Origin: Eubacterium sp.
GTDB lineage: Bacteria > Bacillota > Clostridia > Lachnospirales > Lachnospiraceae
Assembly: GCA_017619835.1 (NCBI GenBank)
Contig: JAFZRN010000010.1
Span: 26,085 to 90,084, forward strand
Direction: 5' to 3'
DNA length: 64,000 nt
Below, one piece after another: positions 10,720-55,988 of the stretch (positions are counted from its first letter, which is position 1; each line of letters starts with the position of its first letter). Made by a program: the position numbers and the translations under genes. Below the pieces are notes generated by a model, which worked only from the letters and a program-made list of their open reading frames with translations, was not told the origin of the DNA and did no database searches.

Positions 10720-10731
10720 TATTAGTTCCTC

Positions 10732-11789: not shown

Positions 11790-11841
11790 GAGTTTGGCGA
11801 CAACATACATCGGGATACCGGCTTTTGCCGGTATCCCGATG
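11790..11841 (+). repeat. Dispersed leader-plus-hairpin element, copy 2
   Basis: Leader GAGTTTGGCGACAACATA (11790-11807), then a perfect 15-bp stem (11808-11822 with 11827-11841) around TTTT. The leader is 17/18 identical to copy 1. The upper stem differs from copies 1 and 3 (ATACCGG against ACTATGG), with both arms changed so that pairing is kept. It lies between two gene remnants. Confidence 0.75.
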
Positions 11842-12256: not shown

Positions 12257-12332
12257 TGTTGCGCTTTTGTTATGTTTGTCAGTATATAATTATACAAGTG
12301 GTTATAATTTGATAATAATATGACATTTACAT
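12257..12332 (+). promoter_or_regulatory. Duplicated promoter block, copy 1
   Basis: 38 bp (12257-12294) are identical to 26515-26552, including TATAAT at 12285-12290. After an unconserved gap a second 22-bp segment (12311-12332) matches 26569-26590 at 20 positions with exactly the same spacing. No good -35 hexamer lies 16-18 bp upstream of TATAAT; the conserved upstream box TTGCGCTTTTGTTATG may bind an activator or serve another sigma factor. It drives the operon beginning at 12351. Confidence 0.7.
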
Positions 12333-12350
12333 AAAAGGAGGGCAGTTGCC

Positions 12351-15300
12351 ATGCCAAGAAAAAACAAAGATAAATATCCAAGATATGAGGAAATCAAGCA
12401 GTTCTATGATCTGCACCGTATAGAGACGGATTTTGGTGAGCTGGGTGAGTTTCTTAGTGATGACTGGAAGGAGTATTTTGATGAGATTGTGCCGGTTATC
12501 AGTACGGAAACAGAAAAGATAAGCACAGATAAGCTTAACGGTCTCGGTTTTACGAATCAGGTTTTTGAGGAAGACAAGAGTGATCTTTTAAAGAGGGGCA
12601 AGAAAATAATTGCCGGAATGGAGAAAAAAGTAAAGGATTTTCAGGGACCATTTAAGGAAATGCTGGAAGCCATGTACTATGTGTCAAATCCCAATAACGG
12701 TGATATGCTTGATATGCTCATGGATCAGCCCGAACTTGAGAGAGTTATCATCTCGCCATTTGGTGATATGCCGACACTAACGAATACCGTAACAGTGGAT
12801 GGGAAAAAAGTTAAAGTCATAGATGTGGAGCTTAACAAAAAAAGAGAAGAAGCTCTCGGAGAGTTTGCGGGACTGTATAATAATTATTTTAAGTCAGCAA
12901 AAGAATTAACGCAGGTTATCTATGAGAGACAGAAGGCAGAGTCAAAGGGAGAGACCGGACTTGACACTGCCTATGCTGCGAAGTACGCTGCTGCCATTGA
13001 TTTGCTGGTTGATTCATTTGATAAACTTAGGAGCGCTGCGGAGAAAAGATACAGCAGAACAGATATCGATCAGAGAGAAAAAGACCTGAAATACTTTGAT
13101 GGAACGAACCTTACAATTATGAATAATGAGGTTTCGGAGACTACCTCAGCAGATCCCAATAAGATAAGCAGAAACGCTACACCTGTTGCAATAGCAAATC
13201 TCAGAGCACAGTCCAAAGCCATAAAAAATGGGTGGACGGTAACAGAAGCGCGGCTGATGGGAGTACTTGGCAGTGCGGTGGCAGATGCTGAGAATACTAT
13301 AAAGAATGAAAATATAAATCTTAAAAACACAAAGGGCAAGATTAAACAAGTTGAGAGGGATATTGAAGAAGCGTTAAAGGCCGGTAAGGATGCGACATCT
13401 CTTAAGAATGATGCAGAAAATTATAAAAATGATATTAAGAAATATGAGACAAACCTTACAAATGCGAAAAATGCTCTTAAGGATTCAAAAGAACTATACG
13501 AAAAGTATGAAAATATCAAAAATCCGGACTTTGCCATGCGTCGGGATGCCCTTAAGGACACGAAAGCTCTTCTTGATAAGTATAAGGGTAAGAGTATTAT
13601 AAATATTGCAGAATATTCCTTCAATGCCACAGAAGATAAGCTTACTGATCCATATGATTTTAAGGAGAAAACGCGTCTTGAGCAGGCGGAGGATATGCTT
13701 AAATCCCTTAAAGATGTGGATTCCTGGGGACGTTCCTCCAATAACTTTAAAGAGCTTAAGGCAAGTGTAGAGAAGCTTGTTGAAATGGCAAGGAAATATC
13801 CGCAGGATCTAAATGAAAAGCAGTTCAGAAATTACGAGAAGCAGACAAGAGAAGTACAGAAGAAGATCGATAAGTATCTGAATGGTAAGGAAAAGGAGAA
13901 TAAAGATTATAAGGCCTCTCATAAGGGTAAGGCAATAAAGAGAAGTGAATATACAGCAAAGCGAATTAATACTGTCAGCAGTCTCAGAGATAAGATAAAT
14001 TCACATATCAGTATGGGTTCTGAGAAGTTTACAAAGGAATATACAGGAACTCCCGAAGAGAGAGCTATGGCTAAATATGAGAGTATTATCAAAAGACAGG
14101 AAGAATATAGATACAAAATACTGGGAACAGGCTCTCTTGGTATAAATCATGAAGGTGAAAGCCTGGATATGAGTAAAGAAGCTAACTCCTTCTGCCGTTC
14201 TCTTTATGTGGAAAAAATGAGAGAAAGATATGAATATGATCCTAACTTTAGTGCTTATGATTTTATGGATAGTCTGAATTCTGAAAAGATTAATAAAGGA
14301 GCAAAAGAGGAGTTTAAAAACCTTAATGAGCGGACTGCATTCAAGGAACATATGAAACAGTCGATACGCGACCGTATCGATAATGTGGGAGAACCCGATG
14401 AAACGTATGATGACAGAATATATGTAATAAATGATCCAATTCCTGACGGCGTCGGTCAGGACTGGGTAAGATACGAGCTTAAAAACTACAGAGCAATGTA
14501 TAATATTCCTGAGCCTTCACGGGCAGATTATGTGGATGAAGACGAGCCTGAAAATGAAATCGAAGAGAAGAAGGTAGAAGAGAAGAAAGAAGAAAAGAAG
14601 GCTGAGGAGAAGAAAGAAGAGAAAAAGGTCGAGGAAAAGAAAGAAGAGAAAAAGGCCGAGGAAAAGAAAGAAGAGAAAAAGTCCGAACCGAAGAAGAAAG
14701 GCGAGCTTCAGGATAATCTTGCAGGCAAGATATATAAGGCAATGGGAGATGATGATCTTCTTAAATACAGCCAAGATCCTTTATATAAAGAAATTGCTAA
14801 GAATATGGCCGAGCACTCAGCAAAAGAAGAGCCGGGTAAGAATACAAAGCTTCCGATGTCAACCATGATGAAGATGGCAAGATATGTTGATAAAATGTAC
14901 GATATCAAGAAGCCTTCAGAGGATGATGTGACAAGAAGAAATATTGTCCAAAGTGCATTTGATCAGTATAACCAGAAGACGGCTAAGTTCGAAAAGACCT
15001 CCGGAGATTTCATGTTTAAGGTGCCGGAATTCAATCCACGCTTTGGATACGTTCACGGACAGGGATATTATAAAGAACTGTTTTATAAGAATCTAGAAAG
15101 TAGTTCTAAGAAAATCGGAGAAGCATATCAGGCAAAACCGGAAGATCAGAAGCTTGCAAAGGATGTATTGAATAAGGCTTATCAGGTGATCATGACAGAT
15201 GTTGTGGAAAATACAATAGCAAGGCAGAAGGGAACTCCATATGACACGATTAACAGAGCCTATGATTCAACAGCAGATAAGAAGCAGCGAGATGCGTTTA

Positions 15301-15569
15301 TTGATGATCATTTGGTACCGGAATCATTTAAGAAAAATTACGAGAAGCTTATATTAGACGGAGCAAAGAAAGGAAAGATGAGTGCCGGATTTGCGTCTGA
15401 TTCCTGCGATAAGGCTCTTGCCATGACTCTCGATGATGCGAAGAAAGCTAAGGACACACAGACAGAGCTTAAAGTAAAGCATCTTATGGATAAGTTAAAA
15501 CGTAATCCAAGACAAGTTGAGAAGCTTCGTGAGAAGGCACCGGAGGTTCAGAAAACTGTTAAAAAGTAA
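12351..15569 (+). CDS. Giant charged, coiled-coil-rich protein of unknown function (1072 aa)
   Basis: I do not recognise a family. The protein is 1072 aa, strongly charged and mostly helical, with no signal peptide or membrane segment, so it is cytosolic or exported by an unusual route. Residues about 310-390 look like a long coiled coil (KGKIKQVERDIEEALKAG and following). Residues 741-776 are four 9-residue units of K(V/A)EEKKEEK. Beyond these lies a more globular C-terminal part (about 790-1072). The start has GGAGGG 8 nt upstream. It is the first gene of an operon with the surface protein at 15615 (45-bp gap), a second giant protein and an esterase. Confidence 0.85.
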   Translation: MPRKNKDKYPRYEEIKQFYDLHRIETDFGELGEFLSDDWKEYFDEIVPVISTETEKISTDKLNGLGFTNQVFEEDKSDLLKRGKKIIAGMEKKVKDFQGPFKEMLEAMYYVSNPNNGDMLDMLMDQPELERVIISPFGDMPTLTNTVTVDGKKVKVIDVELNKKREEALGEFAGLYNNYFKSAKELTQVIYERQKAESKGETGLDTAYAAKYAAAIDLLVDSFDKLRSAAEKRYSRTDIDQREKDLKYFDGTNLTIMNNEVSETTSADPNKISRNATPVAIANLRAQSKAIKNGWTVTEARLMGVLGSAVADAENTIKNENINLKNTKGKIKQVERDIEEALKAGKDATSLKNDAENYKNDIKKYETNLTNAKNALKDSKELYEKYENIKNPDFAMRRDALKDTKALLDKYKGKSIINIAEYSFNATEDKLTDPYDFKEKTRLEQAEDMLKSLKDVDSWGRSSNNFKELKASVEKLVEMARKYPQDLNEKQFRNYEKQTREVQKKIDKYLNGKEKENKDYKASHKGKAIKRSEYTAKRINTVSSLRDKINSHISMGSEKFTKEYTGTPEERAMAKYESIIKRQEEYRYKILGTGSLGINHEGESLDMSKEANSFCRSLYVEKMRERYEYDPNFSAYDFMDSLNSEKINKGAKEEFKNLNERTAFKEHMKQSIRDRIDNVGEPDETYDDRIYVINDPIPDGVGQDWVRYELKNYRAMYNIPEPSRADYVDEDEPENEIEEKKVEEKKEEKKAEEKKEEKKVEEKKEEKKAEEKKEEKKSEPKKKGELQDNLAGKIYKAMGDDDLLKYSQDPLYKEIAKNMAEHSAKEEPGKNTKLPMSTMMKMARYVDKMYDIKKPSEDDVTRRNIVQSAFDQYNQKTAKFEKTSGDFMFKVPEFNPRFGYVHGQGYYKELFYKNLESSSKKIGEAYQAKPEDQKLAKDVLNKAYQVIMTDVVENTIARQKGTPYDTINRAYDSTADKKQRDAFIDDHLVPESFKKNYEKLILDGAKKGKMSAGFASDSCDKALAMTLDDAKKAKDTQTELKVKHLMDKLKRNPRQVEKLREKAPEVQKTVKK
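14571..14678 (+). repeat. Four tandem 27-bp units encoding K(V/A)EEKKEEK
   Basis: In-frame units at 14571, 14598, 14625 and 14652, alternating Val and Ala at the second residue, followed by a fifth partial unit ending in SEPKKK. The repeat length allows slippage without frameshift, so copy number may vary between strains. The encoded segment should be a rigid single alpha-helix or coiled coil. Confidence 0.85.
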
Positions 15570-15614
15570 AAGGTGCTTTACAATATAAATAAAACAATAC
15601 AGATGGAGAGAATA

Positions 15615-18600
15615 ATGAAAAGAAAACTATTATTAACGCTGCCTATATTGATTATTGGAATATTGTTATACGGTAATCCGTCAAAGGATCATGTTAACGC
15701 TGCCACTGTTACGGTAACAACTAAGGAGCAGCTTAAGAATGCGATTACTGCGGAAGGGGATGCCGATATCAAATTAGGGGCTGATATTAAAGGCTTATAT
15801 GATGTAACAATTCCACAGGGCAAGAATGTAACGCTTGATCTTAACGGGCATACTTTAGATGCCGGATTATATTCAGGTGTTAATACCCCTGCAAATAAGA
15901 AACCGTTGTTTTGGGTTTATGGTAATCTTGAGATTAATGACTTATCCAATGAAGGCAAGATTACAGGTGCATCATATAGTGCTTTAGTGATATATCCCAG
16001 TGGAATGGTTACAATGAATGGAGGAATCTTTACTAAAAACTGGAGTAATTTATCCGGTGGTGCCATATCCGTTCTGGGAGGATCCTTTATCATGAACGAT
16101 GGTGAATTGTTTAATAATTCTACTTCCTATCAAGTTGCCTCAAAAGGCATGGGTGGTGCCATATATATGACAAATTATAATGATAATGAATGCGAAGTTA
16201 CTATCAATGGTGGTGCAATAAGCTGGAATTTTGCTTCATATGGCGGCGGAATATACGTTAGTAATGGTAAGCTTAACATAAATGGTGGTGCTATTGGCAG
16301 TACGACTGGCTATAATCATATGGGTAATCAAACACCTAAAGCCGAAAGAGGGTCAGGTATATATATTAATAAGGGAATATTAGATATGACCGGTGGAGAG
16401 ATTCGTGGTCAGGATAAGAGCGGAGTTGTAGTAGGAGAAAAAGGAACATTTAACTTCAGAGGCGGAAAAGTTAATGGAAATCTTACAGGTATTTATAATT
16501 ATGGTACCATGAACATGACCGGCGGTGAAATACTAGGTGGTGACCTTTATGGAGCGCAACAAGAAGGCGTAATCGTTGATTACGGAGCTACATTCTGGAT
16601 GAAGGCAGGAACTATTCATAATAATCATGTTGGAGTTGTTGTTCAAGGAACAGCTTCCAATGAAGAAGAGAGACCGTCATTATTTCACATGACCGGCGGT
16701 GAAATCAGAGATAATAAGGGAAATGAAAAAGGTGCCGGCGTGAAGGTAGCTGAGGGCGGAGCAATGGTAATGAGCGGTGGTACTATAAGCGGAAACACCA
16801 CGGGAAATTATTCGCTCCACGATTATTATGGCGGCGGTGTATGCGTTATTGATCAGTATAGTCAGTTTGCTATGACAGGTGGAACAATTACGGGAAATTC
16901 GTGTCCGGAAGGAGACGGCGGTGGTATATATGTCGGTAAAGGTGCAACTTGTATTCTTACCGGAGGTACTATAACCCAAAATAGCGCTTCTGATACGGGT
17001 GGACAACACTATGGCGGCGGTGTTTTTGTTGCTTATGATGGTATTTGTCAAATTTCAGGCAAGCCTGTTATTACAGATAATTATCTTCTTGATAACAACA
17101 ATACAGTCAGCAATCTTCATGTAAACCAGACTAATTACGGTGCTGAGAGAGTACTTACTGTCAATGCGCCGCTTATGACCGGTGCGAAGATAGGAGTTAC
17201 AGTTAAGAATAATTACATGCCGTTAACGGTAACAGAAGACTATAACAGTAATATGGATGATGTTGCCGGACTGTATTTCTTTAGTGATAATCCGAAATAT
17301 CATGTGACAAGAAATAGCGATGGTGAGGTTATACTTAAGGATTGCAATTCAACACTTAATAAGATTGCAGCAAGCGCTGCAACCTGTACAGAAACAGGTA
17401 ATATAGAATACTATCAGTGTCCTGTTTGTAAGGAGTTGTTTACTGACGCAGCAGGAACAATTTATACTACCAAGACATTAGTGACAACCAATGCTATAGG
17501 TCATGACTGGGGTGAGCCTACTTATACATGGTCGGACGATCACAAGTCAATAATAGCAAAACGAGTGTGTAAAAATGATGCAAGTCATGTCGAGACGGAA
17601 GATGGAGAAATATTTGTGAGTGTGGCTTTGTCAGGATCCTGTCAGGTTTTAAATATGACATGTTATACGGCAGAATTTGCTAATCCTGCTTTTGAGGATC
17701 AAAGGTATATTGAGACAACAACCCCAGGCCCCCATAAGCCAGGCAATCAGGTTGTTGAAAATATTGTGGCCTCTACCTGTACCGAAGAGGGAAGCTGCGA
17801 TTTTGTGTACTACTGTAAATATTGTAATGAAGAAATGAGTCGAGTACATAAGACTTATTCTGCATTAGGTCATGACTTTACAGAGTGGGAACAAGTTCAA
17901 AGTACAAGATTCAGATATTGTAAGAGGTGCGGATATTATGAAACCGAATCTGTGACGTGGGATACATGTACTCATGAGAAAGAACTTATACCGGAAGAAG
18001 CGGCTACCTGTGTCACATATGGAATGAAAGCTCATTACAAATGTAAATATTGTGGTGCAGTCTTTGAAAAAGAAGATGAAACGACACCTGTTACAAAGGA
18101 TGAGATGGATAAACTTGTTATAAACAAGGATCAGGATAACGGTCATAAGTGGTCAGATAAGTTGCGTGAAAACGAAAGGGCGGCCGATTGTCTTACTGCT
18201 GACAGTTACGATATTGTAAGGTATTGTGAGAGATGCGGTAAGCGGGAAGAGGAGGATACTTATACAGGTAATCCGTTAGGGCATAGATATGGTGAGCCTG
18301 TTTATACCTGGTCTGAGGATAATTTAGAGGTTACTGCAACTCATATATGTAATCGTGATTCAGCTCACGTTGAGACAGAAACTGTTGAAACAACATCACA
18401 GATAACACCTGCAACCTGTACTGCTAAAGGAAAAATAACCTATACGGCGGTATTTAATACTCAGGGGTTTACGAATCAAACTAAAACAGTTGATGGTGAT
18501 GATATTAAAGATCATGATTGGGATGATGCTGAATACACATGGTCTGAGGATAACAGTGAGGTTACTGCCACACATACCTGTAAGGCATGTCAGAAGGATG

Positions 18601-19841
18601 AGAGCGAGACGGTAACGACGATATCCCGTGTTACCAAGGCTGTAACATGTACTCAGGATGGTGTAACAACCTATACTGCATTATTTACTAATCCGACATT
18701 TGAAAGTCAGACAAAACAGATTGCAAATATCAATAAGACAGGTCATGACTGGGGTGAGCCGGAATATAACTGGTCTTCTGATAACAAGGTTTGTGAAGCT
18801 GTGCGTACATGTAAAAATGATCCTGATGAGATTGAGTCAGAAATAGTTGATACATCTGAAGTAACGAAGCAGGCGACCTGTTGTGAGAAGGGTGAAACTA
18901 CATATACAGCGGTATTTACTAAGGCGTGCTTTGACGAACAGACTAAGGTAGTAGAACTTCCGATTGATTCCAATAAACACGTTCCGAGAGCTGCTGTAAA
19001 GGAGAATGATGTCAAAGCGACTTGTACTTTGTGTGGTTCTTTTGATGAAGTTATATATTGCGACATATGCAACAAAGAGCTTGAAAGAACTACTAAGAAG
19101 ACTGATGCGTTAGGACATAAATGGGGTGAATGGAAGATTACAAAAGAAGCAACAGTTGCTGAGGAAGGAATCGAAGAAAGAACCTGTACTGTATGTGGTG
19201 AGAAAGAATCACGTTCTCTTGAAAAACTTGCACCTGTTTCTGATGAAGAAATCGATAAGCAGATAATTGAACACAAGGACGAAAGCGATCTCAAAGGCTC
19301 TAGCTTTACACTTCTTATGGCAAAGGGTGTACCGGTATCCAAAAACTCCATTAAGCTGACATGGAAGAAGGTTCCGGGTGCTAAAGAATATATAATCTAC
19401 GGTAATAAGTGTGGCAGAAAGAACAAGTATAAAAGAATAACTTCTGTGAAGTCTAAGAAATATATCAGAAAGAATCTTAAGGTCGGAACATATTACAAGC
19501 ACATTATTGTTGCTGTTGATGAATATGGTCAGATACTCGCCATCTCTAAGACTATACATTGTGTAACTAATGGTGGTAAGAACGGAAATAATACGAAGGT
19601 CATACCTAGCAAAAGAAAGCTGACCCTTAAAGTCGGAAAGTCAAAAAAGATAAAAGCTAAGCTTAAGGCTAAGAAGCCTGTTCATATCCACAGAGATATC
19701 GCATGGGAGTCGGACAATCCTTCCATTGCGACAGTAAATAAGAAAGGTAAGATCAAGGGTATCAGTAAAGGTACATGTTATGTATATGCTTATGCACAGA
19801 ACGGTGTATATGCCAGAATAAAGGTAACTGTTAAAAAGTAA
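15615..19841 (+). CDS. Giant secreted beta-helix protein with CxxC repeats and C-terminal Ig-like module
   Basis: 1408 aa. A Sec signal peptide (MKRKLLLTLPILIIGILLYG, cleavage probably near VNA-A) is followed by a right-handed beta-helix (about 45-560) built from MTGGEI- and GGGIYV-type turns. Then comes a series of modules with HDWGEPxYTWS and paired Cys (CPVC, CKYC, CKRC, CERC, CTVC) to about 1210, and a basic C-terminal module: an Fn3-like stretch (ITSVKSKKYIRKNL, GTYYKHIIVAV) and a BIG2-like domain ending GVYARIKVTVKK. There is no LPxTG signal. The last 190 residues resemble those of the product at 55989. ATG 15615 has GGAGAG upstream. It is likely an adhesin or carbohydrate-contacting surface protein. 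Confidence 0.85.
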   Translation: MKRKLLLTLPILIIGILLYGNPSKDHVNAATVTVTTKEQLKNAITAEGDADIKLGADIKGLYDVTIPQGKNVTLDLNGHTLDAGLYSGVNTPANKKPLFWVYGNLEINDLSNEGKITGASYSALVIYPSGMVTMNGGIFTKNWSNLSGGAISVLGGSFIMNDGELFNNSTSYQVASKGMGGAIYMTNYNDNECEVTINGGAISWNFASYGGGIYVSNGKLNINGGAIGSTTGYNHMGNQTPKAERGSGIYINKGILDMTGGEIRGQDKSGVVVGEKGTFNFRGGKVNGNLTGIYNYGTMNMTGGEILGGDLYGAQQEGVIVDYGATFWMKAGTIHNNHVGVVVQGTASNEEERPSLFHMTGGEIRDNKGNEKGAGVKVAEGGAMVMSGGTISGNTTGNYSLHDYYGGGVCVIDQYSQFAMTGGTITGNSCPEGDGGGIYVGKGATCILTGGTITQNSASDTGGQHYGGGVFVAYDGICQISGKPVITDNYLLDNNNTVSNLHVNQTNYGAERVLTVNAPLMTGAKIGVTVKNNYMPLTVTEDYNSNMDDVAGLYFFSDNPKYHVTRNSDGEVILKDCNSTLNKIAASAATCTETGNIEYYQCPVCKELFTDAAGTIYTTKTLVTTNAIGHDWGEPTYTWSDDHKSIIAKRVCKNDASHVETEDGEIFVSVALSGSCQVLNMTCYTAEFANPAFEDQRYIETTTPGPHKPGNQVVENIVASTCTEEGSCDFVYYCKYCNEEMSRVHKTYSALGHDFTEWEQVQSTRFRYCKRCGYYETESVTWDTCTHEKELIPEEAATCVTYGMKAHYKCKYCGAVFEKEDETTPVTKDEMDKLVINKDQDNGHKWSDKLRENERAADCLTADSYDIVRYCERCGKREEEDTYTGNPLGHRYGEPVYTWSEDNLEVTATHICNRDSAHVETETVETTSQITPATCTAKGKITYTAVFNTQGFTNQTKTVDGDDIKDHDWDDAEYTWSEDNSEVTATHTCKACQKDESETVTTISRVTKAVTCTQDGVTTYTALFTNPTFESQTKQIANINKTGHDWGEPEYNWSSDNKVCEAVRTCKNDPDEIESEIVDTSEVTKQATCCEKGETTYTAVFTKACFDEQTKVVELPIDSNKHVPRAAVKENDVKATCTLCGSFDEVIYCDICNKELERTTKKTDALGHKWGEWKITKEATVAEEGIEERTCTVCGEKESRSLEKLAPVSDEEIDKQIIEHKDESDLKGSSFTLLMAKGVPVSKNSIKLTWKKVPGAKEYIIYGNKCGRKNKYKRITSVKSKKYIRKNLKVGTYYKHIIVAVDEYGQILAISKTIHCVTNGGKNGNNTKVIPSKRKLTLKVGKSKKIKAKLKAKKPVHIHRDIAWESDNPSIATVNKKGKIKGISKGTCYVYAYAQNGVYARIKVTVKK

Positions 19842-19896
19842 TGATTATTCAATTGATATAAGGGCTTTGTATTACCAATATGAGGAGGCAGTTATT

Positions 19897-22800
19897 ATGA
19901 AGGAAGTAGATGAAAATGTTGTTGATAATGAGGGGCAGGAGGCGGCAGATAAAGGGATATTTGACGATTATGTTGATGTGAATGCCGATAAAATATACCA
20001 GTCATATTACAAGAAGAATCTGCTGGATGTGGATTATACATTTGATGATAATATCGAAGATGGTATGACCAAAAGCCAGAAAAAAGACCGAAAGAATATG
20101 ATCCATACTTATAATGAACAAACCACAGATCTGAATAAACTCTGGCATGTATTGTCAATCGAAACATATATCAGCCTGAATGAATCAAGAAAAGAAATCC
20201 CCAAGGAGCAGTGGGATGAACTTAAGCTTACGGAAAATGATGCACATATGGCTGCGCTCGATGAGCAGATGTCAACCCAGGTCATTAAAGATATAATCAA
20301 AAATGATGGAATCGATGGAATAGAGAAAGTATATAAATATGCAGGTATTATCAGGGCTCGTATCAATGCGATGAGGAAGAAGGAATGGGATGAGATCAGA
20401 GCTTCCATTGATGAACCTGACGGAAATCTGCGGGATAAAAAAGCGGATTATATCTATCAAAGCGGCGGTTTTTTGACTGATCTTTATATACAGAATCTAT
20501 CAGGTTTTGAAAGCACAATAGAAAGGGTACTTAAGGAACTTGGATTTGACATCAGTGAAGAACTGTTCAGTAAAGCAAAGATAGATGAGAATACAACGAT
20601 TGAACAATATAATAGATTATTGGGCAGGGATTCTAATAATGTTATCGATAGGAACGGTATTAAGTATGATCCCAAGTCTACAATATATGATATGGTAAAG
20701 GCGAATCTTACCCGTAATAATGTTGAACCGAGTAAGCAGCAGATCATTAAGGCAATGAAGTCTAATTTCAGAGATCAGATGACACTTAAATGGAATGGAG
20801 ACGGACAGAGAGAGTACTATAATAATTCCACGGATGCGGAAAAAGCAGGCATTGATAAGGGAAAACAGCTTTTTAATATGACTGAAGACAGCTTGCTTGA
20901 AGGGGTTGGCAATGAATTTATCAACTGGATTGCCACTGAGGGTGCTGCGAAAAAGCAGAGTATGCAAACGGATAAAAATATAAAATATATCCGCGTTATC
21001 AATGATCAGATCACATCCGGTAAAGATAATATGCTAAGTTCTGAAAGAGCTGTATCCAAGGTACTTGCAGAGGAAATCAGAGATATCGATTATCTGAAAG
21101 GCGCTATAAGAAATCTCTATGCGACCCATAAGGGCGAGAGTAATGGCAAAGAAAGAAGTGCCAATTCAAAAAAATATGATGCCATGCTAAGTGTCATTGT
21201 TGATTATGATGCGGCGCTCAGAAGAGGAGAAGGCGGCAAAGCACTTGTTTTAAAGGACAAAATGGTCGAGAAATGTCTCGATTATATAGACGGAAGGCTT
21301 GATATCAGAAGTACGGATTTTGGTAAGGAACGATTTGATATTGCCATGACTGTTCTTATGAAGAACATGGATCCAAATGATTTCGGTGAGCTTCTCAGAG
21401 ATATCAATAAGTCAAGAAAAGCAAAAAATGCAGACGATACCGGATATGTGAACAGGCAGTACTATGAGAACAAGCTGCGCAGTAATAATGAGAAGGCAGC
21501 TAATCTGGCACATTATACACCGGATCAGTTAGCTGAAAGATATAAGGCGAGAGAGGAAATGAGATTAAAATCAGCCGGTGAATTCTTACTTGAAGGACCG
21601 GGATCTGATGGCGGTTGGAATGCAGCATCACCTTTTATTAGAAGGAACTGGAATCTTACCGAGGATGATATGAAGGATATCGAGAAGAGCCTCGCTGATG
21701 AAAAGTTTATTTTTGAAACAGATATCGTCAAAACCGAAGAAAGTACGGTTGCACAGTGTAATGATGCAATGAAGAGGATGAAGAAGGGAGACTATAGTAA
21801 GTTCAATCATCTTCCCGTATTTTTAAGGGAATACTATGGAAAGAAAATGCTTAGGGAGGTTTTCGGATCAGATATGGATATACCTCCTCTTGATGACGAA
21901 ATGAAGAAAAAAATGGCAGGACTTAATAATAATCCTGTATTTCGTTATGCCATGACGCAGCTTATCGACAGAAATGCGGTTAACAGTACGGGAGAACCTA
22001 TGGCAAATCTCATTAAAGAATATGATTCTTATATGAATCATGTGATGCTTGCCAATACGCTCAATCCTGTAAGTGATACCGGAATCAAAAATATAAAAAA
22101 GAAATACCCCGGAGAAAAAGGGGATAAGATTATAGAAGACAACAGTGAAAAGCAGGTATTTGTAGCCAAGACCATTTTTATGGCCCAGCTTGGACGCACT
22201 GATATCATAAGTGGAGAAAACGGCAATCAGGTTGAACCGTACTATGGCAACATATCAGAGCTTTTTGCTCATGGAAGCAGAGTGATATTTACGCTTCCTC
22301 CCGGAAATGAAAATGTTCAGGATAAGGTCTTTGATTCCTGGAGAAAAAAAGCTCTCGACAGAGATGTTATGATAGATGGTCGTTTTGCAAGCCATGATAT
22401 GAGAAGAAGACACGTTGATGATGACGGCAATATGACACAGCCTGCAAAAGAGATCAGATATAAATGGAAAGAGCAGATACTGAGTGGTCAGTTAAATAAA
22501 AAGGTGACAACCTATGCCAATAATTATGGTATGAATATTCCGTTGGGCGGTCTGGGAAAGAAATTCAACGGTAATGACTGCGTGGATGGTGAGGGAACCT
22601 TTGGTCACATTTATATAAAAGCTATGAAGGGAGAGAAGAACCGTTGCGGAACGCTGCTGATAGGAGTTGAGAATTCTGCTCCCAAAACCGAGAGCTGCAT
22701 AGGGCAGCTTCACAACTTTAAAGCTATAGGTCACGATATGTCAACATTCTTTGCAAGCAAGAAGACAGTTGGAGCACCATATGGCGGACGTGAGATAGAC

Positions 22801-23718
22801 CTTTCTCATATGAAAGCGGATGAATTTGAGAAGGCTATGAATCAATTTGAAGCCGGTTATCGTGAACTTCAAAAAAGTGCAAAAAAAGATCCTGAGGCAG
22901 ATAAAAAACTAAAGAGTATCAATAACAAGCTTTGCGGCGGTAAGATGACTGCAATTGAGCTTGCCGCACTTATGACTTCGCTTGGAATGGAGAAAAAAGA
23001 TGCCATAAAGCTTGCGGAGGCAGGAAGAAGTGTTAAGGATGCAAGATATCCGGAAGATCAGTATCGTGAGGATATGAAAAAGATAACGGATCCGGAAAAG
23101 GTTATCGACAGACCGTATGACAAGAAAAAAACAGATCGCATGAAGGAGCTTAAGGGAATGTCTTCCTATGTTGACAGCATGAGGAGACAATGGAATGTGA
23201 TGGCATCACATACACTGTTTGACGCATGGAATACCGACGAGTTTTCAGAAATGGAAAAGGCAATGAAAAGTTACCTTAAAGCTTATGATAATATCATGGC
23301 AGGTAAGACGGCAAATGGAAAAGAACTGCTTGCAAATCCTGACCAGCTTCCGAAGGAAGAATATAAAAAGCTTAAAGCACTTGAAGAAGAGATGGTATTT
23401 GCTGCAAAAGACTACCATAATATAAAAATGCAGTACAAAGAGGGTGATTTTAACAAACATAGTACTGCTCAGGCTCGTGACAGGGATGCGATGAGTATCA
23501 TGATCTCGGAATTCTCTGTAGAGGCAAGAAAAAATATCCCTGGCGATTTGGAAAACCCGGCTGAAGCTTTGAATCAGGCAATGAACAAAAGTGAGAGAAA
23601 TGCCATAGAAAAACAGAAGAATCAGGAGGCGAGAAGGAAGCTTGACGAGAGAGTGAGGAAGCTTTCCGAGGAGGCCTCACAAAAACAGAAGAAAACAGCC
23701 AATAATCCTCAAAGATAG
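19897..23718 (+). CDS. Giant protein of unknown function (1273 aa), full-length paralogue
   Basis: No family recognised. 1273 aa, mostly helical and charged, no signal peptide. Residues 1-443 and 1154-1273 are closely matched by the 560-aa protein at 26633; residues 444-1153 are unique. The unique part includes a Gly-rich, apparently globular stretch around 880-965 (PLGGLGKKFNGNDCVDGEG, GTLLIGVENSAP, APYGGREIDLSHM) with Cys895, Cys917, Cys934, His939 and His946. The C-terminus is a basic helix (KNQEARRKLDERVRKLS). ATG 19897 has GAGGAGG 8 nt upstream and aligns with the paralogue's start. It is 55 bp after the surface-protein gene and 19 bp before the esterase. Confidence 0.87.
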   Translation: MKEVDENVVDNEGQEAADKGIFDDYVDVNADKIYQSYYKKNLLDVDYTFDDNIEDGMTKSQKKDRKNMIHTYNEQTTDLNKLWHVLSIETYISLNESRKEIPKEQWDELKLTENDAHMAALDEQMSTQVIKDIIKNDGIDGIEKVYKYAGIIRARINAMRKKEWDEIRASIDEPDGNLRDKKADYIYQSGGFLTDLYIQNLSGFESTIERVLKELGFDISEELFSKAKIDENTTIEQYNRLLGRDSNNVIDRNGIKYDPKSTIYDMVKANLTRNNVEPSKQQIIKAMKSNFRDQMTLKWNGDGQREYYNNSTDAEKAGIDKGKQLFNMTEDSLLEGVGNEFINWIATEGAAKKQSMQTDKNIKYIRVINDQITSGKDNMLSSERAVSKVLAEEIRDIDYLKGAIRNLYATHKGESNGKERSANSKKYDAMLSVIVDYDAALRRGEGGKALVLKDKMVEKCLDYIDGRLDIRSTDFGKERFDIAMTVLMKNMDPNDFGELLRDINKSRKAKNADDTGYVNRQYYENKLRSNNEKAANLAHYTPDQLAERYKAREEMRLKSAGEFLLEGPGSDGGWNAASPFIRRNWNLTEDDMKDIEKSLADEKFIFETDIVKTEESTVAQCNDAMKRMKKGDYSKFNHLPVFLREYYGKKMLREVFGSDMDIPPLDDEMKKKMAGLNNNPVFRYAMTQLIDRNAVNSTGEPMANLIKEYDSYMNHVMLANTLNPVSDTGIKNIKKKYPGEKGDKIIEDNSEKQVFVAKTIFMAQLGRTDIISGENGNQVEPYYGNISELFAHGSRVIFTLPPGNENVQDKVFDSWRKKALDRDVMIDGRFASHDMRRRHVDDDGNMTQPAKEIRYKWKEQILSGQLNKKVTTYANNYGMNIPLGGLGKKFNGNDCVDGEGTFGHIYIKAMKGEKNRCGTLLIGVENSAPKTESCIGQLHNFKAIGHDMSTFFASKKTVGAPYGGREIDLSHMKADEFEKAMNQFEAGYRELQKSAKKDPEADKKLKSINNKLCGGKMTAIELAALMTSLGMEKKDAIKLAEAGRSVKDARYPEDQYREDMKKITDPEKVIDRPYDKKKTDRMKELKGMSSYVDSMRRQWNVMASHTLFDAWNTDEFSEMEKAMKSYLKAYDNIMAGKTANGKELLANPDQLPKEEYKKLKALEEEMVFAAKDYHNIKMQYKEGDFNKHSTAQARDRDAMSIMISEFSVEARKNIPGDLENPAEALNQAMNKSERNAIEKQKNQEARRKLDERVRKLSEEASQKQKKTANNPQR

Positions 23719-23737
23719 ATGTTCAGGAGGAAGAGAG

Positions 23738-24625
23738 ATGAAAGAAGAAAGACCTTCACCACCATGGATAAACGAAATACCGGAGGGAGCGACGATATCT
23801 TATGATCCGACTTATCCCACGGGAAGCTTTTTTGATAGATTTAATAAAGGTAGTTATTCCGGGATGAAGTATTACTTCTATGATCCCACGGAACATGGAT
23901 ATCCGAATAAAGAAGACTATCCGCTAATGATCTTCCTGCATGGTACAGGTAATGCTCTGGTCGGTGACCTTTGCATCAATTATACGGGTGCAGAGATGTA
24001 TGCATCGGATGAATATCAGAATGATATAGGTGGAGCATATATTCTTGTGCCTGTGGCAAATGAGGTTCAGGATAAGGATGGGAATACGACAGGATTCTGG
24101 GACGAGGATTATGTTGAACCGATTATTGATCTTACTCAATATTTCATAAAGAATCATACAAACGGTATTAAAGAAAAGATACTTCTCGGAAACTCAAGCG
24201 GAGCCCGATTTACTTTTACTATTGCAAAAAAGCATCCCGAAAAATTCGATATACTTGTACCTGTTGGAACAAGCGATATTCCGGATGATGAAACGCTCGA
24301 TATATTGAGTGATTTAGGTGTTACACTTTTTTATGCAATATGTAAACATGATGAGTTTTTCCCGTATGATACACAGGTTGCTCCTCGAATCGATAAGTTA
24401 AGAGGAATGAAAAATAGTTTCATTTTCACTCCTGACTGGACATATAATGGAGATAAAGGAATTGCATCGATCAATTTCGGATTTGAAATGGGACAGCATT
24501 GTCTTATGAACGGAGTTCAGATGAATCTGAAGTTTGATGACGGAACTCCTATGTATGCCTCGCTTCCGAGAGGTTTTACCGGGTGGCTGTCTGATGAACT
24601 GAAGAGAAGAAAAAACATAGTATGA
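23738..24625 (+). CDS. Alpha/beta-hydrolase, probable serine esterase
   Basis: A 295-aa alpha/beta-hydrolase of the depolymerase/esterase type. The oxyanion strand FLHGTG, the nucleophile elbow GNSSGA, an Asp in ICKHDEFFPYD and a His in MGQHCLM give a credible Ser-Asp-His triad. There is no signal peptide, unusual for PHB-depolymerase-like esterases, so it is cytosolic. Its gene follows the 1273-aa protein by 19 bp with AGGAGGAAGAG before the start, and is the last in the operon from 12351. It may remove acyl groups from something made or imported by this locus; the substrate is unknown. Confidence 0.8.
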   Translation: MKEERPSPPWINEIPEGATISYDPTYPTGSFFDRFNKGSYSGMKYYFYDPTEHGYPNKEDYPLMIFLHGTGNALVGDLCINYTGAEMYASDEYQNDIGGAYILVPVANEVQDKDGNTTGFWDEDYVEPIIDLTQYFIKNHTNGIKEKILLGNSSGARFTFTIAKKHPEKFDILVPVGTSDIPDDETLDILSDLGVTLFYAICKHDEFFPYDTQVAPRIDKLRGMKNSFIFTPDWTYNGDKGIASINFGFEMGQHCLMNGVQMNLKFDDGTPMYASLPRGFTGWLSDELKRRKNIV

Positions 24626-24686
24626 TTTTGCAAAAGTGCATCTTACGATATATAAATGCATTTTACCTTGTAAAATATTGAATATT

Positions 24687-24748
24687 AAAAAGGCTTGGTT
24701 TATAGTCGCGTTAACAAAAATATTAACGACTATATTCCAGGTCTTTTT
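24687..24748 (+). terminator. Long two-part hairpin terminator after the esterase
   Basis: The outer arms 24687-24698 and 24737-24748 pair over 12 bp (two G-U), and the inner arms TATAGTCG/CGACTATA and TTAA/TTAA pair around AAAAATA with a CG bulge. The right outer arm ends in TTTTT, which suits termination. It separates the four-gene operon from the CPBP gene. Confidence 0.6.
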
Positions 24749-24768
24749 AGTTTCGGAAGGAGAGTAAG

Positions 24769-25515
24769 ATGAATAAGATCTATAAGAAAAATGAAGTTAC
24801 GTTTGCAATCATATGTATTATTATTTATGTAGTTGGGACAAGTGTAGCGGAATCTATTTCTGCTTCGATCGGGATTGAAAAACTTCCATCGATGATATTC
24901 CACGTTGGATTTACGATCGTTTTATTAGTCTGGCTGAGTAAGAACGGCCTTTTTGAAAAATATGGACTGATAAAGCCGGAGTATAAATTGTCAAAAGCAT
25001 GGTTTTTCATTCCACTCATGCTTATAGCTTTTTCCGGCATTTACTTTGGAGTGACTCTTAAGTATTCGGCTGCCGAGACTGCGTTTTATATGATCAGCAT
25101 GATCTGCGTAGGTTTTCTTGAGGAAGTTATATTCAGAGGGTTTTTGTTTGTGGGTATAGCAAAGAAGAGTATAAAAAGGGCGATAATTATATCAGCTGTA
25201 ACATTTGGGATAGGCCATATAGTTAATCTTCTTGCAGGACAGCCGCTGCTTGAAACATTGCTTCAGATCGTCTTTGCGATAGTTGTAGGTTTTACTCTGG
25301 TTACCCTGTTTTATAAAGGAGGCAGCCTGATCCCATGTATTATATTTCATAGTGTTAATAATTCACTAAGTGCCATAAGTAATGAAGATGCTTCGCTCAA
25401 AGTATTCGGAAGTGTAGAGAAAGAACTTATCATAACTGTCTCTATTGCGATCGTTATATGTGCGGTATACGGACTGGCCATGTGGCGTACACTTGGGAGA
25501 GAAAAGGAAGAATAG
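24769..25515 (+). CDS. CPBP-family intramembrane metalloprotease
   Basis: A 248-aa polytopic membrane protein with all three CPBP motifs: LEEVIFRG (Glu118, Glu119, Arg123), FGIGH (His150) and FHSVNN (His194, Asn198). The family includes prenyl-protein proteases, bacteriocin self-immunity proteins and regulators of membrane-bound factors. GGAAGGAGAG lies 6 nt before the ATG. It precedes a LytTR/DUF3021 pair by 90 bp, the same order as 4390-6022. A possible job is processing or sensing at the membrane upstream of that regulator; this is inference from position only. Confidence 0.88.
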   Translation: MNKIYKKNEVTFAIICIIIYVVGTSVAESISASIGIEKLPSMIFHVGFTIVLLVWLSKNGLFEKYGLIKPEYKLSKAWFFIPLMLIAFSGIYFGVTLKYSAAETAFYMISMICVGFLEEVIFRGFLFVGIAKKSIKRAIIISAVTFGIGHIVNLLAGQPLLETLLQIVFAIVVGFTLVTLFYKGGSLIPCIIFHSVNNSLSAISNEDASLKVFGSVEKELIITVSIAIVICAVYGLAMWRTLGREKEE

Positions 25516-25604
25516 TTACGGCTTGTAAATCATTTCCCGCATTGTTATACTCTCTATGAAAAGACTAAACTTATACTTTGTATAGGAGTAAATGAAAACG
25601 GATC

Positions 25605-26054
25605 ATGGAGTTAAAGGTAAGAAGAGTACCTATAGAAGAACCGGAGGTTCTGGAGATAAGATGTCATAAGGTGTCAGATGACGTTCAGGAGATCATCTCT
25701 TTTGTGAAGTCCAGGCAGGGACAGATCAGTACTGAAAAGGATGGACACAGGATCGAGATACCTTTGATCGACATATTCTATGCAGAATCTGTGGATAACA
25801 GATTGTTTGTTTATACTGCAAAGGACAGCTACGAGGTTAAACTGAAACTATATGAGCTTGAGGATATGCTTAGAGGCAGGACCTTCATTCGCGTGCAGAA
25901 GAGCCTGCTTCTTAATCTGATGAAGATTAAATCTATCAAGCCGGCACTTAGTGGAAGATATACGGCACTTTTAAAAAACAGCGAAGAGGTAGTGATATCA
26001 AGGAAGTATGTATCTGATCTTAAGAATGCTTTGAAGGGTGGTGAGAAGAAATGA
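25605..26054 (+). CDS. LytTR-domain transcriptional regulator
   Basis: A 149-aa stand-alone LytTR regulator. The DNA-binding domain spans roughly residues 45-145, with IPLIDIFYAESVDNRLFVYT, TFIRVQKSLLLNLMKIKSI and VVISRKYVSDLKNALKG, the classic LytTR landmarks. There is no receiver domain. It overlaps the DUF3021 gene by 4 bp (ATGA). Being the last regulatory module before the promoter block at 26515, it is a candidate regulator of the giant-protein genes, but no LytTR-type direct repeats were recognised in that block. Confidence 0.9.
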   Translation: MELKVRRVPIEEPEVLEIRCHKVSDDVQEIISFVKSRQGQISTEKDGHRIEIPLIDIFYAESVDNRLFVYTAKDSYEVKLKLYELEDMLRGRTFIRVQKSLLLNLMKIKSIKPALSGRYTALLKNSEEVVISRKYVSDLKNALKGGEKK

Positions 26055-26494
26055 GGTTGAAGGAAAGACTGATAGAAGCGTTTAGGCTATATTTTATCCT
26101 AGTGACGCTTATTACAATCCTTCTGATGGTGATAGGACTTCTTTTTGATAGTGAAAGAAGATTTGGTTATGAAGTGTTCCTCTCACCTCTTGTATATGCT
26201 GCAATCGGTGTGATACCGGCATTATTTTTCCGTTCTGAGAAAGAAGTCAGCATGGTCAGGATGCTGGTAAGACGTATCATCCAGGTTCTGTTCATCGAAG
26301 CGGCCGTGATGGTACTGGTGTTTACGTCTTCCAATATTCCGTCTGACCGAAAGGAAGTAGTGATAAGCATAGCGGCCGGTATAGTAGTTGTATTTATTCT
26401 TTCTCAGTTTGCTGAATATATATTCGAACTATCGCAGTCAAAGGTGCTTAATGAATCGCTTGAAAAGTACCAGCAGTTGAATGAAACAAGATAG
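26051..26494 (+). CDS. DUF3021 family membrane protein
   Basis: A 147-aa protein with four predicted membrane helices and a charged C-terminal tail (FELSQSKVLNESLEKYQQLN). It overlaps the LytTR gene by 4 bp, so the two products are almost certainly made together. As with the other two DUF3021 genes here, the expected role is to bind and restrain the LytTR partner at the membrane; the signal that releases it is unknown. Confidence 0.82.
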   Translation: MRLKERLIEAFRLYFILVTLITILLMVIGLLFDSERRFGYEVFLSPLVYAAIGVIPALFFRSEKEVSMVRMLVRRIIQVLFIEAAVMVLVFTSSNIPSDRKEVVISIAAGIVVVFILSQFAEYIFELSQSKVLNESLEKYQQLNETR

Positions 26495-26514
26495 CATTCA
26501 TGTGTTCATGTATG

Positions 26515-26590
26515 TGTTGCGCTTTTGTTATGTTTGTCAGTATATAATTATATAACTGCAAGACATTAGATAATAATTAGACATTTACAT
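26515..26590 (+). promoter_or_regulatory. Duplicated promoter block, copy 2
   Basis: 26515-26552 is identical to 12257-12294, with TATAAT at 26543-26548. The second conserved segment 26569-26590 lies at the same distance as in copy 1. It precedes the 560-aa paralogue gene, implying shared control of that gene and the operon at 12351. Confidence 0.7.
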
Positions 26591-26632
26591 TTAAATATCA
26601 GTAGAAAGCGATGAATTAAGGAGAGATATGTA

Positions 26633-28315
26633 ATGAAGGAAATTGAAGAACAGGCATTAGACAATAATCTGGATGATGATAATATTGAAGAGAGCAAGGG
26701 CATATTTGACGATTATGTAAATGTAAGCTCTACCAAGATATTTCAGTCATATTACAAGAAGAACGAACTGGATGAAGATTATACCTTTGATGACAATATC
26801 GAAGCTGCCATGACCAACAGTCAGAAAAAGGATCGGAAGAATATGATCCGCACATATAATGAGCAGTCTTCGGATCTTAACATGCTTTGGCATGTATTAT
26901 CAATCGGAGTAAGTGCAGGTCTTAATGATACTAAAAATACTGTACCTCGTGAACAGTGGGATGAGCTCAAGCTTACAGAAGAAGATGCACATATTGTTGC
27001 TCTTGATCAGGCAATCACAGGTCAGGTTATCAAGGATATCATCAAAAATGACGGGATCGATGGAATAGAAAGATTATACAGATATATAGGTATTCAAAAA
27101 GCCCACATCAATACGATGATGAAGAAGGAATGGGATGATTTAAGAGCGTCTATTGATGAACCGGACGAGATGCTGCGGAATAAAAAGGCGGATTATCTTT
27201 ATCAAAGCGGAGGCTTTCTGTCTGATTATTATTTACAGAATATAAACGGTTTTATAAGCGCAATTGACAGGGTTTTAAAAGAGCTTGGTATTGATTTTGA
27301 AAATGAACTGTTCAAGAAATATAAGCTAGACGAGAATACAACAATTGAGGACTTTAATAGGTTGTTAGGAATGGATTCCGGGATTGTTCTTGATAAGAAT
27401 GGTAATAAGCATGATCCCAAGTCAACCATGTATGATCTTGTAAAAGCTAACATTACCTACAATAATGTGGAACCAACTAAAGATAAGATTATAACAGCAA
27501 TGAAAGCCAATTTTAGGGATCAGATTACGATCAAATGGAATGGAGATGGACAGAAGGCTTATTATGAAAATGCCACGGACGCGGTAAAGGCTGACATAGA
27601 TAAGGGAATACAGCTTCTTAATATGAGTGAAGAAAAGGTCCTTAAAGGAAGCAGCGAAGCAATGATCAACTGGGTTGCCGCCGAGGGGGCCATTGCAAAA
27701 GAAAGCATACGAAATGATAATTATATCAAAAGTGTACGCTTAATTAATTCTCAGATAACATCCGGCAAAGATAATTTATTTAGTTCGGAAAGAGCTGTTT
27801 CAAAGGTACTTGCAGCTGATATCAAGGATAAGGATTATCTTAAGGGTGCCATTAGAAGTCTTATAGCTACTCACAAGGGAGAGAGTAAAGGAAAGGACAG
27901 AAGCGGCAATTCCAAAGAATATGAAGCTATGCTTGGTGCCATAATGGATTATGATGCTGCAATCAGAAGAGAGGAATATAACAGACTTAAAAAGCTGGAA
28001 GAAGATATGGTCTATGCGGCAAAGGATTATCATAATATAAAGGTGAGTCAGAAGTCCGGCGGTTTTGAGAAGCATAGTACGGATCAGGCAAGAGACAGGG
28101 ATGCCATGAGTATGTTGATCTCAGAATTCTCTGTCAGTGCAAGGAATAAGCTTCCGGAGGATAACGCTTTGGATAATCAGGCGGCAAACCCGAATGCTGT
28201 AAATAATCTGAGCAAAAGACAGCGTGCTGAAATTGAAAGGCAGAAGAATCAGGAGGCACGAAGAAAGCTGGATGAGAGGGTGAGAAAGCTTTCTAATGAT
28301 GCGATGAAGAAATAA
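26633..28315 (+). CDS. 560-aa paralogue of the 1273-aa protein, lacking its centre
   Basis: Co-linear with residues 1-443 of the product of 19897 (for example FDDYVNVS for FDDYVDVN, KKDRKNMIRTYNEQ, VIKDIIKNDGIDGIE), then it jumps at AAIRR/EEYNRL straight to the counterpart of residue 1154 and continues to the shared basic C-terminus (KNQEARRKLDERVRKLS). The missing 710 residues correspond to 2130 nt, an exact multiple of three, and include the Cys/His-bearing globular part. The frame is intact and has its own promoter and GGAGAG ribosome site, so it is probably expressed. It may cap, compete with or co-assemble with the long form. Confidence 0.85.
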   Translation: MKEIEEQALDNNLDDDNIEESKGIFDDYVNVSSTKIFQSYYKKNELDEDYTFDDNIEAAMTNSQKKDRKNMIRTYNEQSSDLNMLWHVLSIGVSAGLNDTKNTVPREQWDELKLTEEDAHIVALDQAITGQVIKDIIKNDGIDGIERLYRYIGIQKAHINTMMKKEWDDLRASIDEPDEMLRNKKADYLYQSGGFLSDYYLQNINGFISAIDRVLKELGIDFENELFKKYKLDENTTIEDFNRLLGMDSGIVLDKNGNKHDPKSTMYDLVKANITYNNVEPTKDKIITAMKANFRDQITIKWNGDGQKAYYENATDAVKADIDKGIQLLNMSEEKVLKGSSEAMINWVAAEGAIAKESIRNDNYIKSVRLINSQITSGKDNLFSSERAVSKVLAADIKDKDYLKGAIRSLIATHKGESKGKDRSGNSKEYEAMLGAIMDYDAAIRREEYNRLKKLEEDMVYAAKDYHNIKVSQKSGGFEKHSTDQARDRDAMSMLISEFSVSARNKLPEDNALDNQAANPNAVNNLSKRQRAEIERQKNQEARRKLDERVRKLSNDAMKK

Positions 28316-28394: not shown

Positions 28395-29318
28395 TTACTT
28401 GCCCACTGAATCACTGTTAACGGGGAACGTAAAATAAGTATCAGGATAGGGCTCATTCTTAAGTGTAAAATGCCACCATTCTTCGGCAAGCGGTTTAAAT
28501 CCATGATTAAGCATAGCTTCCCTTAGGATCATTCGGTTAGCATATTGTTCGGCAGTTATTGCAGTATAATCCGGATGGCTGAGCTCTCCGAAGTAATCAA
28601 AGGTACCGCCCATATCAACTTCTTTTTCGGTTGTCATATCAAAGAGAGTAAGATCAACCGTACTTCCGCGGCTGTGTCCTGAATGTCTGGCAATATATCC
28701 CTGATCAAAAAGAACGCCCTTATCGAGTTCCGGATAGAAATACTCTTTCATACGGGTATCTTCTACATCGAGAGACCATTCAACAAAGTTATCCACTGCT
28801 TCCTGTGGTCTGTATGCATCGAAGATCTTAAGTCTGTAGCCTTTTTCCTTAAGTTCCTCATTTACTTCCTCTAGAGCATCAGCTGCTTCTTTCGTTAGAA
28901 GAGCAAGAGGTTCTTCGTATCCGTCAATCCTGTCACCTACGAAGTTGTAGGTTGAATAATATCTTATCTCCAGAATTGCGTCAGGTACAGCTTCACTGAG
29001 CATTACAAAGTCGGAAGAATCGTCGGAATAGTTGAGTCCGTCATTTCTGTTGCTATAGTCTTCAGGGGCCTCTTCGGGCTCCTTTTCAGTTGCAGCTTCG
29101 GTTGTAGCTTCAGTTGTAGCTTCAGTGGTTTCTTCAGTTGTCGCCTCAGTTGTGACTTCGGTAGCAGCTTCGGTTGAGCTTTCAGTTGTGGTCACGGTAG
29201 TGGCTTCAGTAGTTGCTTCTGTCGTAGCTTCGTATATTTTTGATTTGCCACAGCCAGTCAGTATTAATGAAAAGGCTGCGATGATTGCAAATGTTTTTCT
29301 GAGCTTTATCTGCATCAT
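28395..29318 (-). CDS. VanX-like D-Ala-D-Ala dipeptidase lipoprotein
   Basis: A 307-aa secreted M15D-family peptidase. A lipoprotein signal (lipobox LTGC, Cys23) is followed by a Thr/Glu linker with many ATTEATTEA repeats (31-80) and the catalytic domain (about 100-300). Zinc ligands and catalytic residues are visible: SGHSRGSTVDL (His215, Asp222) and EEWWHF (Glu280, His283), plus Arg170 in DAYRPQ. VanX proteins of resistance clusters are cytosolic; an exported form more likely trims or recycles D-Ala-D-Ala peptides from peptidoglycan. No vanHA genes are nearby. AAGGAGG lies 7 nt before the ATG pair at 29318/29315. Confidence 0.87.
   Translation of the reverse strand: MMQIKLRKTFAIIAAFSLILTGCGKSKIYEATTEATTEATTVTTTESSTEAATEVTTEATTEETTEATTEATTEAATEKEPEEAPEDYSNRNDGLNYSDDSSDFVMLSEAVPDAILEIRYYSTYNFVGDRIDGYEEPLALLTKEAADALEEVNEELKEKGYRLKIFDAYRPQEAVDNFVEWSLDVEDTRMKEYFYPELDKGVLFDQGYIARHSGHSRGSTVDLTLFDMTTEKEVDMGGTFDYFGELSHPDYTAITAEQYANRMILREAMLNHGFKPLAEEWWHFTLKNEPYPDTYFTFPVNSDSVGK
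29081..29228 (-). repeat. Low-complexity Thr/Glu/Ala linker repeats
   Basis: Imperfect 12-15-bp units encoding ATTEA, TTEA and similar, inside the VanX-like gene after the lipobox. Likely a flexible, possibly glycosylated tether; unit number is prone to change by slippage. Confidence 0.75.
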
Positions 29319-55933: not shown

Positions 55934-55988
55934 AAACATAGGCAAATATGTTATAATATATAAAAAAATAAGGTATGAGGGGATAGAA

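What the first reader, a model, noticed from the sequence alone, without database searches (positions are those of the whole stretch)
12257..28315. Candidate undescribed system: giant-protein operon plus satellite paralogue under duplicated promoters
Four tightly spaced genes (gaps 45, 55 and 19 bp) encode a 1072-aa coiled-coil protein, a 1408-aa secreted beta-helix protein, a 1273-aa unknown protein and a serine esterase. A 560-aa paralogue of the third lies beyond a CPBP/LytTR/DUF3021 cassette. The two giant proteins have no signal peptide and no recognised family, yet are co-transcribed with an exported protein. Co-regulation and co-localisation suggest one machine, perhaps for assembling, modifying or displaying the surface protein; that role is inference.
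Basis: partly seen in the sequence, partly recalled or inferred. Interest (0 to 1): 0.78.

Follow-up and report, generated by a model that had tools for sequence, protein, structure and literature searches.

The report
Giant toxin-domain proteins in gut bacteria
Two of the four genes belong to a little-studied set of very large proteins made by some bacteria of the gut family Lachnospiraceae; one carries a known putative toxin domain, and a second copy nearby has lost exactly that part, which suggests a stock of effector proteins rather than a machine that builds the neighbouring surface protein.

Summary
The genes, their spacing and the duplicated promoter are real. The 1273-aa protein (P3) is not without a family: it has an Ntox11 putative-toxin domain (aa 749-1004, E 5.5e-21) with the signature residues kept, set between helical modules N1-N2 and a weak second N2. 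The 560-aa "satellite" (P8) is P3 aa 1-443 fused to 1154-1264: the toxin cassette is gone. P8 has been kept under purifying selection. A 36-nt promoter core is identical before P1 and P8 and was found nowhere else in this genome or 60 congeneric ones. P1 and P3 belong to a set of long signal-less proteins in Lachnospiraceae, partly in islands (one of about 120 kb); members elsewhere carry a Fam20/PI3-kinase-like motif or an ADP-ribosylglycohydrolase. P2 ends in a module repeated in many surface-type proteins, and P4's relatives occur without P1 or P3, so one "machine" for P2 is not supported. Best reading: P3 is an effector-like enzyme of the polymorphic-toxin kind and P8 its toxin-free co-regulated partner; delivery route and target unknown. 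The contractile-injection marker is absent. The Ntox11 model (pTM 0.88) matched no solved structure at E 0.001.

The parts
12257..12332 (+). promoter-region repeat copy 1 (TATAAT at 12285-12290), ending 18 nt before the P1 start codon
12351..15569 (+). P1, 1072 aa, signal-less giant with KE-rich stretch; homologues over most of the length in G017, G002, G029, partial in G033, G036, G047
15615..19841 (+). P2, 1408 aa secreted repeat protein; C-terminal fn3-like/Big_2 module repeated in other proteins of the genus
19897..23718 (+). P3, 1273 aa: N1 - N2 - C1 - Ntox11 - C3 - N2-like tail
20062..20808 (+). N1 module of P3 (aa 56-304), shared by the giant family
20923..21465 (+). N2 module of P3 (aa 343-523), found in 49 fetched proteins, P3 and P8 included
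22141..22908 (+). Ntox11 domain of P3 (aa 749-1004)
   Evidence: Pfam E 5.5e-21; conserved residues; models
23356..23676 (+). tail of P3 (aa 1154-1260), weak second N2 copy
   Evidence: clean profile E 0.0018, best of 200 shuffles 0.33; pairwise score reached by 3 of 500 shuffles
23738..24625 (+). P4, alpha/beta-hydrolase-like (sub-threshold), not linked to P1/P3 elsewhere
24769..26494 (+). CPBP (24769-25515), LytTR regulator (25605-26054), small hydrophobic protein (26051-26494)
26515..26590 (+). promoter-region repeat copy 2, ending 42 nt before the P8 start codon
26633..28315 (+). P8, 560 aa: P3 aa 1-443 fused to 1154-1264 (junction near 27971); Ntox11 cassette absent

Best explanation
P3 is an effector-like enzyme of the polymorphic-toxin kind: an intact-looking Ntox11 domain is carried as a cassette inside a helical N1-N2...N2-like scaffold whose modules many other giants of these Lachnospiraceae share with different contents. 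P1 is another member of this arsenal. P8 is the same scaffold without the toxin cassette, probably produced by an in-frame exchange between N2 and the N2-like tail, kept by selection and preceded by the same promoter; most simply it acts as a toxin-free partner, competitor or chaperone of P3. P2 and P4 are co-transcribed passengers or accessory products rather than parts of a conserved machine. Shown: domains, architecture, fusion, selection, promoter identity, family and islands. Inferred: toxicity, the exchange event, the role of P8, action on another cell. Unknown: substrate and export route.
For: Ntox11 at 75.7 bits v cut-off 25. Signature residues are invariant or nearly so in alignments of 12 and 19 sequences. 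C1-Ntox11-C3-tail stands alone as 721- and 710-aa proteins in two congeners. N-half profile in 10 of 397 family genomes, 9 of 334 genera. P8 fusion; tail resembles N2; P3/P8 dN/dS 0.16 and 0.10. Fragments of the C-half that lack the Ntox11 stretch in G023, G025:C142, G059. Giants elsewhere: ADP_ribosyl_GH E 2.8e-37; Fam20/PI3-kinase-like NxDRHxxN...DNDxFG residues the same in 3 of 3, one of them directly before a P1 homologue. Island 9.5-129.4 kb of G029:C43, 92% covered by ORFs of 500 aa or more. A VpdC domain called distantly homologous contributes to yeast toxicity (PMC11696984, passages).
Against: No export route was found: no signal peptide; contractile-injection marker Pvc16_N absent from G000 and from the 17 genomes with P3 matches; other secretion systems not searched. 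No recognisable immunity gene beside P3. Ntox11 is called structurally uncharacterised and putative. Only 3 of 61 congeners carry Ntox11, so the other giants need not be toxins, and most have no Pfam family. N2-tail homology is weak. In P3 the R-H motif is one residue shorter than in most relatives.
Confidence: 0.55

Rival explanations
1. The giants act inside their own cell, for example in phage defence or programmed arrest: Ntox11, kinase and ADP-ribosyl-hydrolase domains are held in large cytoplasmic proteins and released on a trigger; P8 would be a regulator.
For: No signal peptide in P1, P3, P8; no secretion system found; RsbW/STAS partner-switch genes near some arrays and near some Ntox11 loci.
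Against: No match in PADLOC for P3, and only two weak single hits among 43 giants; nothing in PHROGs for P1, P3, P8 and one other giant. The neighbouring genes were not scanned for defence functions.
Confidence: 0.2
2. One reading: P1, P3 and P4 assemble, modify or display the secreted protein P2.
For: Tight spacing of the four genes and a shared promoter with P8; a P2-like gene also lies just before an N1-N2 giant in G002:C19 (L062).
Against: P2's C-terminal module is generic; P4 relatives live without P1/P3; a P2-like gene lies within two genes of only 4 of 70 carriers.
Confidence: 0.08
3. P3 is cargo of an extracellular contractile injection system (the PVC class to which Ntox11 was first assigned).
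For: Zhang et al. 2012 list Ntox11 with the PVC trafficking mode (PMC3482391, table passage); the genus has the marker in 7 of 61 genomes.
Against: None of those 7 is among the 17 genomes with P3 matches, and G000 has no Pvc16_N match; no overlap has a 9% chance under independence, so this is lack of support rather than proof.
Confidence: 0.06
4. The giants are large structural or scaffold proteins (helical, charged) with ordinary cellular roles; the Ntox11 part is an enzyme of normal metabolism or modification.
For: Lysine/glutamate-rich stretches; Ntox11 proteins in other Lachnospiraceae sit beside GNAT acetyltransferases (13 of 22 distinct genes v 17 of 254 background genes).
Against: Patchy presence (17 of 61 congeners; 10 of 397 family genomes), loss of the Ntox11 part in P8 and in fragments and clustering into islands are not usual for housekeeping proteins.
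Confidence: 0.11

Closest known systems
Ntox11 (PF15521), polymorphic toxin domain of Zhang et al. 2012
   Same: Profile match over positions 3-289 of 294; signature residues kept
   Different: Here internal, not C-terminal; in a signal-less scaffold; no PVC marker in the genome; no immunity gene recognised; R-H motif one residue shorter than in most relatives
Legionella VpdC N-terminal cryptic domain (PMC11696984, passages)
   Same: Described there as distantly homologous to Ntox11; arginine changes there partly relieve yeast toxicity
   Different: VpdC is a Dot/Icm effector with a phospholipase domain; not compared directly here
Fam20 / PI3-PI4-kinase-like atypical kinases
   Same: Three giants of related genomes (L131, L130, L066) share the NxDRHxxN...DNDxFG residues; PDB Fam20A E 5.7e-5
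   Different: Below the Pfam cut-off; these domains are not in the window
Polymorphic toxin systems in general
   Same: Shared scaffold modules with a catalytic cassette that can be absent, fragments without the cassette, patchy distribution
   Different: No recognised export module or immunity protein; toxin domain internal

Membership tests
Ntox11 domain | profile score above curated cut-off | tested here: met
   75.7 bits v 25
Ntox11 domain | signature residues (GxR, RxxxoH, H, GxE, GxxH) | tested here: met
   in C-half numbering G255-R257, R291 and H295, H366, G385-E387, G398-H401, conserved columns; R and H are one residue closer in P3 than in most relatives
Ntox11 domain | fold shared with a solved Ntox11 structure | not testable with these tools
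   no convincing PDB sequence match, no fold match at E 0.001; PMC11696984 calls the domain structurally uncharacterised
polymorphic toxin system | toxin domain at the C-terminus behind a trafficking module | tested here: not met
   Ntox11 is internal (aa 749-1004 of 1273); no known trafficking domain found
polymorphic toxin system | cognate immunity gene next to the toxin | tested here: inconclusive
   P4 and P8 match no convincing immunity family (P8 MafI hit E 0.053, below cut-off); immunity proteins are often unrecognised
polymorphic toxin system | toxicity to a cell | not testable with these tools
   needs an experiment
extracellular contractile injection (PVC) cargo | Pvc16_N-bearing injection system in the same genome | tested here: not met
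   0 in G000 and in the 17 genomes with P3 matches; 7 of 61 in the genus; G000 is 93% complete, only this one marker searched
anti-phage defence system | match to known defence protein models | tested here: not met
   P3 none; among 43 giants two weak single hits

The most novel reading that the evidence does not exclude
These Lachnospiraceae keep an undescribed arsenal of giant, signal-less effector proteins, in islands of up to about 120 kb, with varied catalytic parts (Ntox11, Fam20/PI3-kinase-like, ADP-ribosylglycohydrolase) and often an MKE(V/I/N)(D/E/N) N-terminus that could be an export tag for an unknown route, perhaps aimed at protozoa or rival bacteria; cassette-free partners such as P8 are made under the same promoter.
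Probability: 0.3. Interest if true: 0.85.

Novelty: new variant of a known kind. Interest (0 to 1): 0.58.

Why it matters
Ntox11 is a putative toxin domain described as structurally uncharacterised; here it can be cut out as a compact part with a confident model (pTM 0.88) and has a natural toxin-free paralogue as a control. If the wider set of giants is effector-like, gut and rumen bacteria hold a large class of effectors that annotation misses because the proteins have no signal peptide and no recognised family.
Full report
What is there. The four ORFs, gaps (45, 55, 19 bp) and the 560-aa paralogue are as described. Window = G000:C15:26085-90084 of a 2.75-Mb, 44-contig genome, 93% complete.

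P3 has a toxin domain. Pfam Ntox11 matches aa 749-1004 at E 5.5e-21, 75.7 bits against a cut-off of 25. In alignments of 12 and 19 sequences, P3 included, the conserved columns include the residues of the published signature as I read it from the table passage of Zhang et al. 2012; the R and H of RxxxoH are kept but stand one residue closer in P3 and its nearest relatives. The part from aa 539 on stands alone as 721- and 710-aa proteins in two congeners; C-half matches are in 10 of 397 family genomes and 16 loci of the named collection. Ntox11 is in 3 of 61 genus genomes; of 299 phylum genomes 2 match at E 0.001, 1 over the cut-off, which is G000 itself.

Scaffold and paralogue. Profiles of P3 segments found N1 (aa 56-304) and N2 (343-523) in many long proteins; a profile cleaned of P8 found N2 in 49 fetched proteins, with more than one match in six, clearest as a tandem in L045 and L048. 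The P3 tail (aa 1154-1260) matches that clean profile weakly but in register (E 0.0018; best of 200 shuffles 0.33). A pairwise alignment of N2 and tail gave z 3.7; 3 of 500 shuffles reached its score. P8 is P3 aa 1-443 joined to 1154-1264, so the C1-Ntox11-C3 cassette is missing, as expected from exchange between N2 and its second copy. dN/dS is 0.16 and 0.10 for the two shared parts, pS 0.62 and 0.72: an old, selected copy. C-half fragments that lack the Ntox11 stretch are in G023, G025:C142 and G059.

Promoter. 12257-12332 and 26515-26590 match at 86% with an identical 36-nt core. In 61 genus genomes a 31-nt pattern with up to 3 mismatches occurs twice, both in G000 at these places; the backwards control gives 0. 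Given the synonymous divergence, the identity means constraint or recent gene conversion; I did not separate the two. A -10 box is plain, a -35 box is poor (my reading), which would suit an activator; the LytTR gene next door is a candidate only by position.

The wider family. P3 matches: 17 of 61 genus genomes. P1: 10 of 61, namely G000, six with matches over 300 residues (G002, G017, G029, G033, G036, G047) and three short ones. N-half profile: 10 of 397 family genomes in 9 of 334 genera. P1 profile: 4 of 397, three of them short and weak. In G029:C43 the stretch 9.5-129.4 kb holds 37 ORFs or ORF pieces of 500 aa or more that cover 92% of it; exceptions include an HD-GYP-type sensor (PDB sequence match) and some membrane or lipoprotein-like genes. 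Long soluble proteins in the fetched genus loci begin M[KR]E-[VINEDYLFQ]-[DEN] in 28 of 109 cases against 2 of 390 other ORFs (Fisher 5e-18); common descent may explain part of this, and the 109 include ordinary long soluble proteins. Pfam finds little in the giants: of 43 in the first set 3 Ntox11 and single hits to six other families, best Nif11 E 4.8e-6; of 25 in the second an ADP-ribosylglycohydrolase (E 2.8e-37), one Ntox11 and one PI3/PI4-kinase-like hit just below cut-off. The kinase-like protein has two relatives, one directly upstream of the P1 homologue in G033; the NxDRHxxN...DNDxFG residues are the same in all three and the profile matches PDB Fam20 kinases and pseudokinases (best E 5.7e-5).

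Neighbours. Ntox11 genes have a GNAT acetyltransferase of one family as direct neighbour in 13 of 22 distinct genes against 17 of 254 background genes in the same loci (ten of these proteins checked by Pfam); the five closest to P3, P3 included, have none, though two of these lie near a contig end. A different GNAT lies beside or near giants in four loci (L048, L055, L061, L070). RsbW or STAS genes appear near several of these loci. P2: 42 of 61 genus genomes match some part of it; its last 200 aa recur in at least 8 other places of G000 and in at least 7 other genomes among the rows shown, the list being cut. Within two genes of 70 N1/N2/P1/Ntox11 carriers, 4 have a P2-like gene, in 3 of 51 loci (window, L062, L178). 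P4: 5 of 61 genomes, the other four not carriers of P1 or P3.

Mechanism. Most likely P3 is an effector-type enzyme with a cassette-borne toxin domain and P8 its cassette-free partner; P1 belongs to the same arsenal; P2 and P4 are not parts of a conserved unit. Toxicity, substrate, export and target are inference. Results against: no export system or immunity gene found, Ntox11 internal rather than terminal, contractile injection marker absent.

Limits. 

Noticed in passing
L128-L132, L046, L047, L182 (G029:C43 9.5-129.4 kb): About 120 kb, 92% of it covered by ORFs of 500 aa or more, most without any Pfam family.
   Followed up: partly
L131:232-2709, L130:3087-5654, L066:2538-5600: Fam20/PI3-kinase-like giants with an intact-looking catalytic motif; one directly upstream of a P1 homologue.
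   Followed up: partly
L093, L096-L099, L116-L125: Ntox11 genes paired with a GNAT acetyltransferase family in most of these loci, sometimes in repeated Ntox11-GNAT order (L097, L098).
   Followed up: partly
window 10288-11172 (-) and 25605-26494 (+): Two LytTR cassettes flank the operon; the LytTR proteins share 35 of 132 aligned residues.
   Followed up: no
window 55875-60023: A second long ORF in the window ends in the same C-terminal module as P2 (E 5.3e-55).
   Followed up: no
window 28395-29318 (-): D-Ala-D-Ala dipeptidase-type protein with a TTE-rich stretch (12-nt repeat step).
   Followed up: no
window 11808-11841: Strong 15-bp hairpin, scored as terminator-like on the minus strand, just after the ORF 11329-11781.
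   Followed up: no
G016, G021, G035, G038, G048, G049, G050: Contractile-injection marker Pvc16_N in 7 of 61 genus genomes.
   Followed up: no
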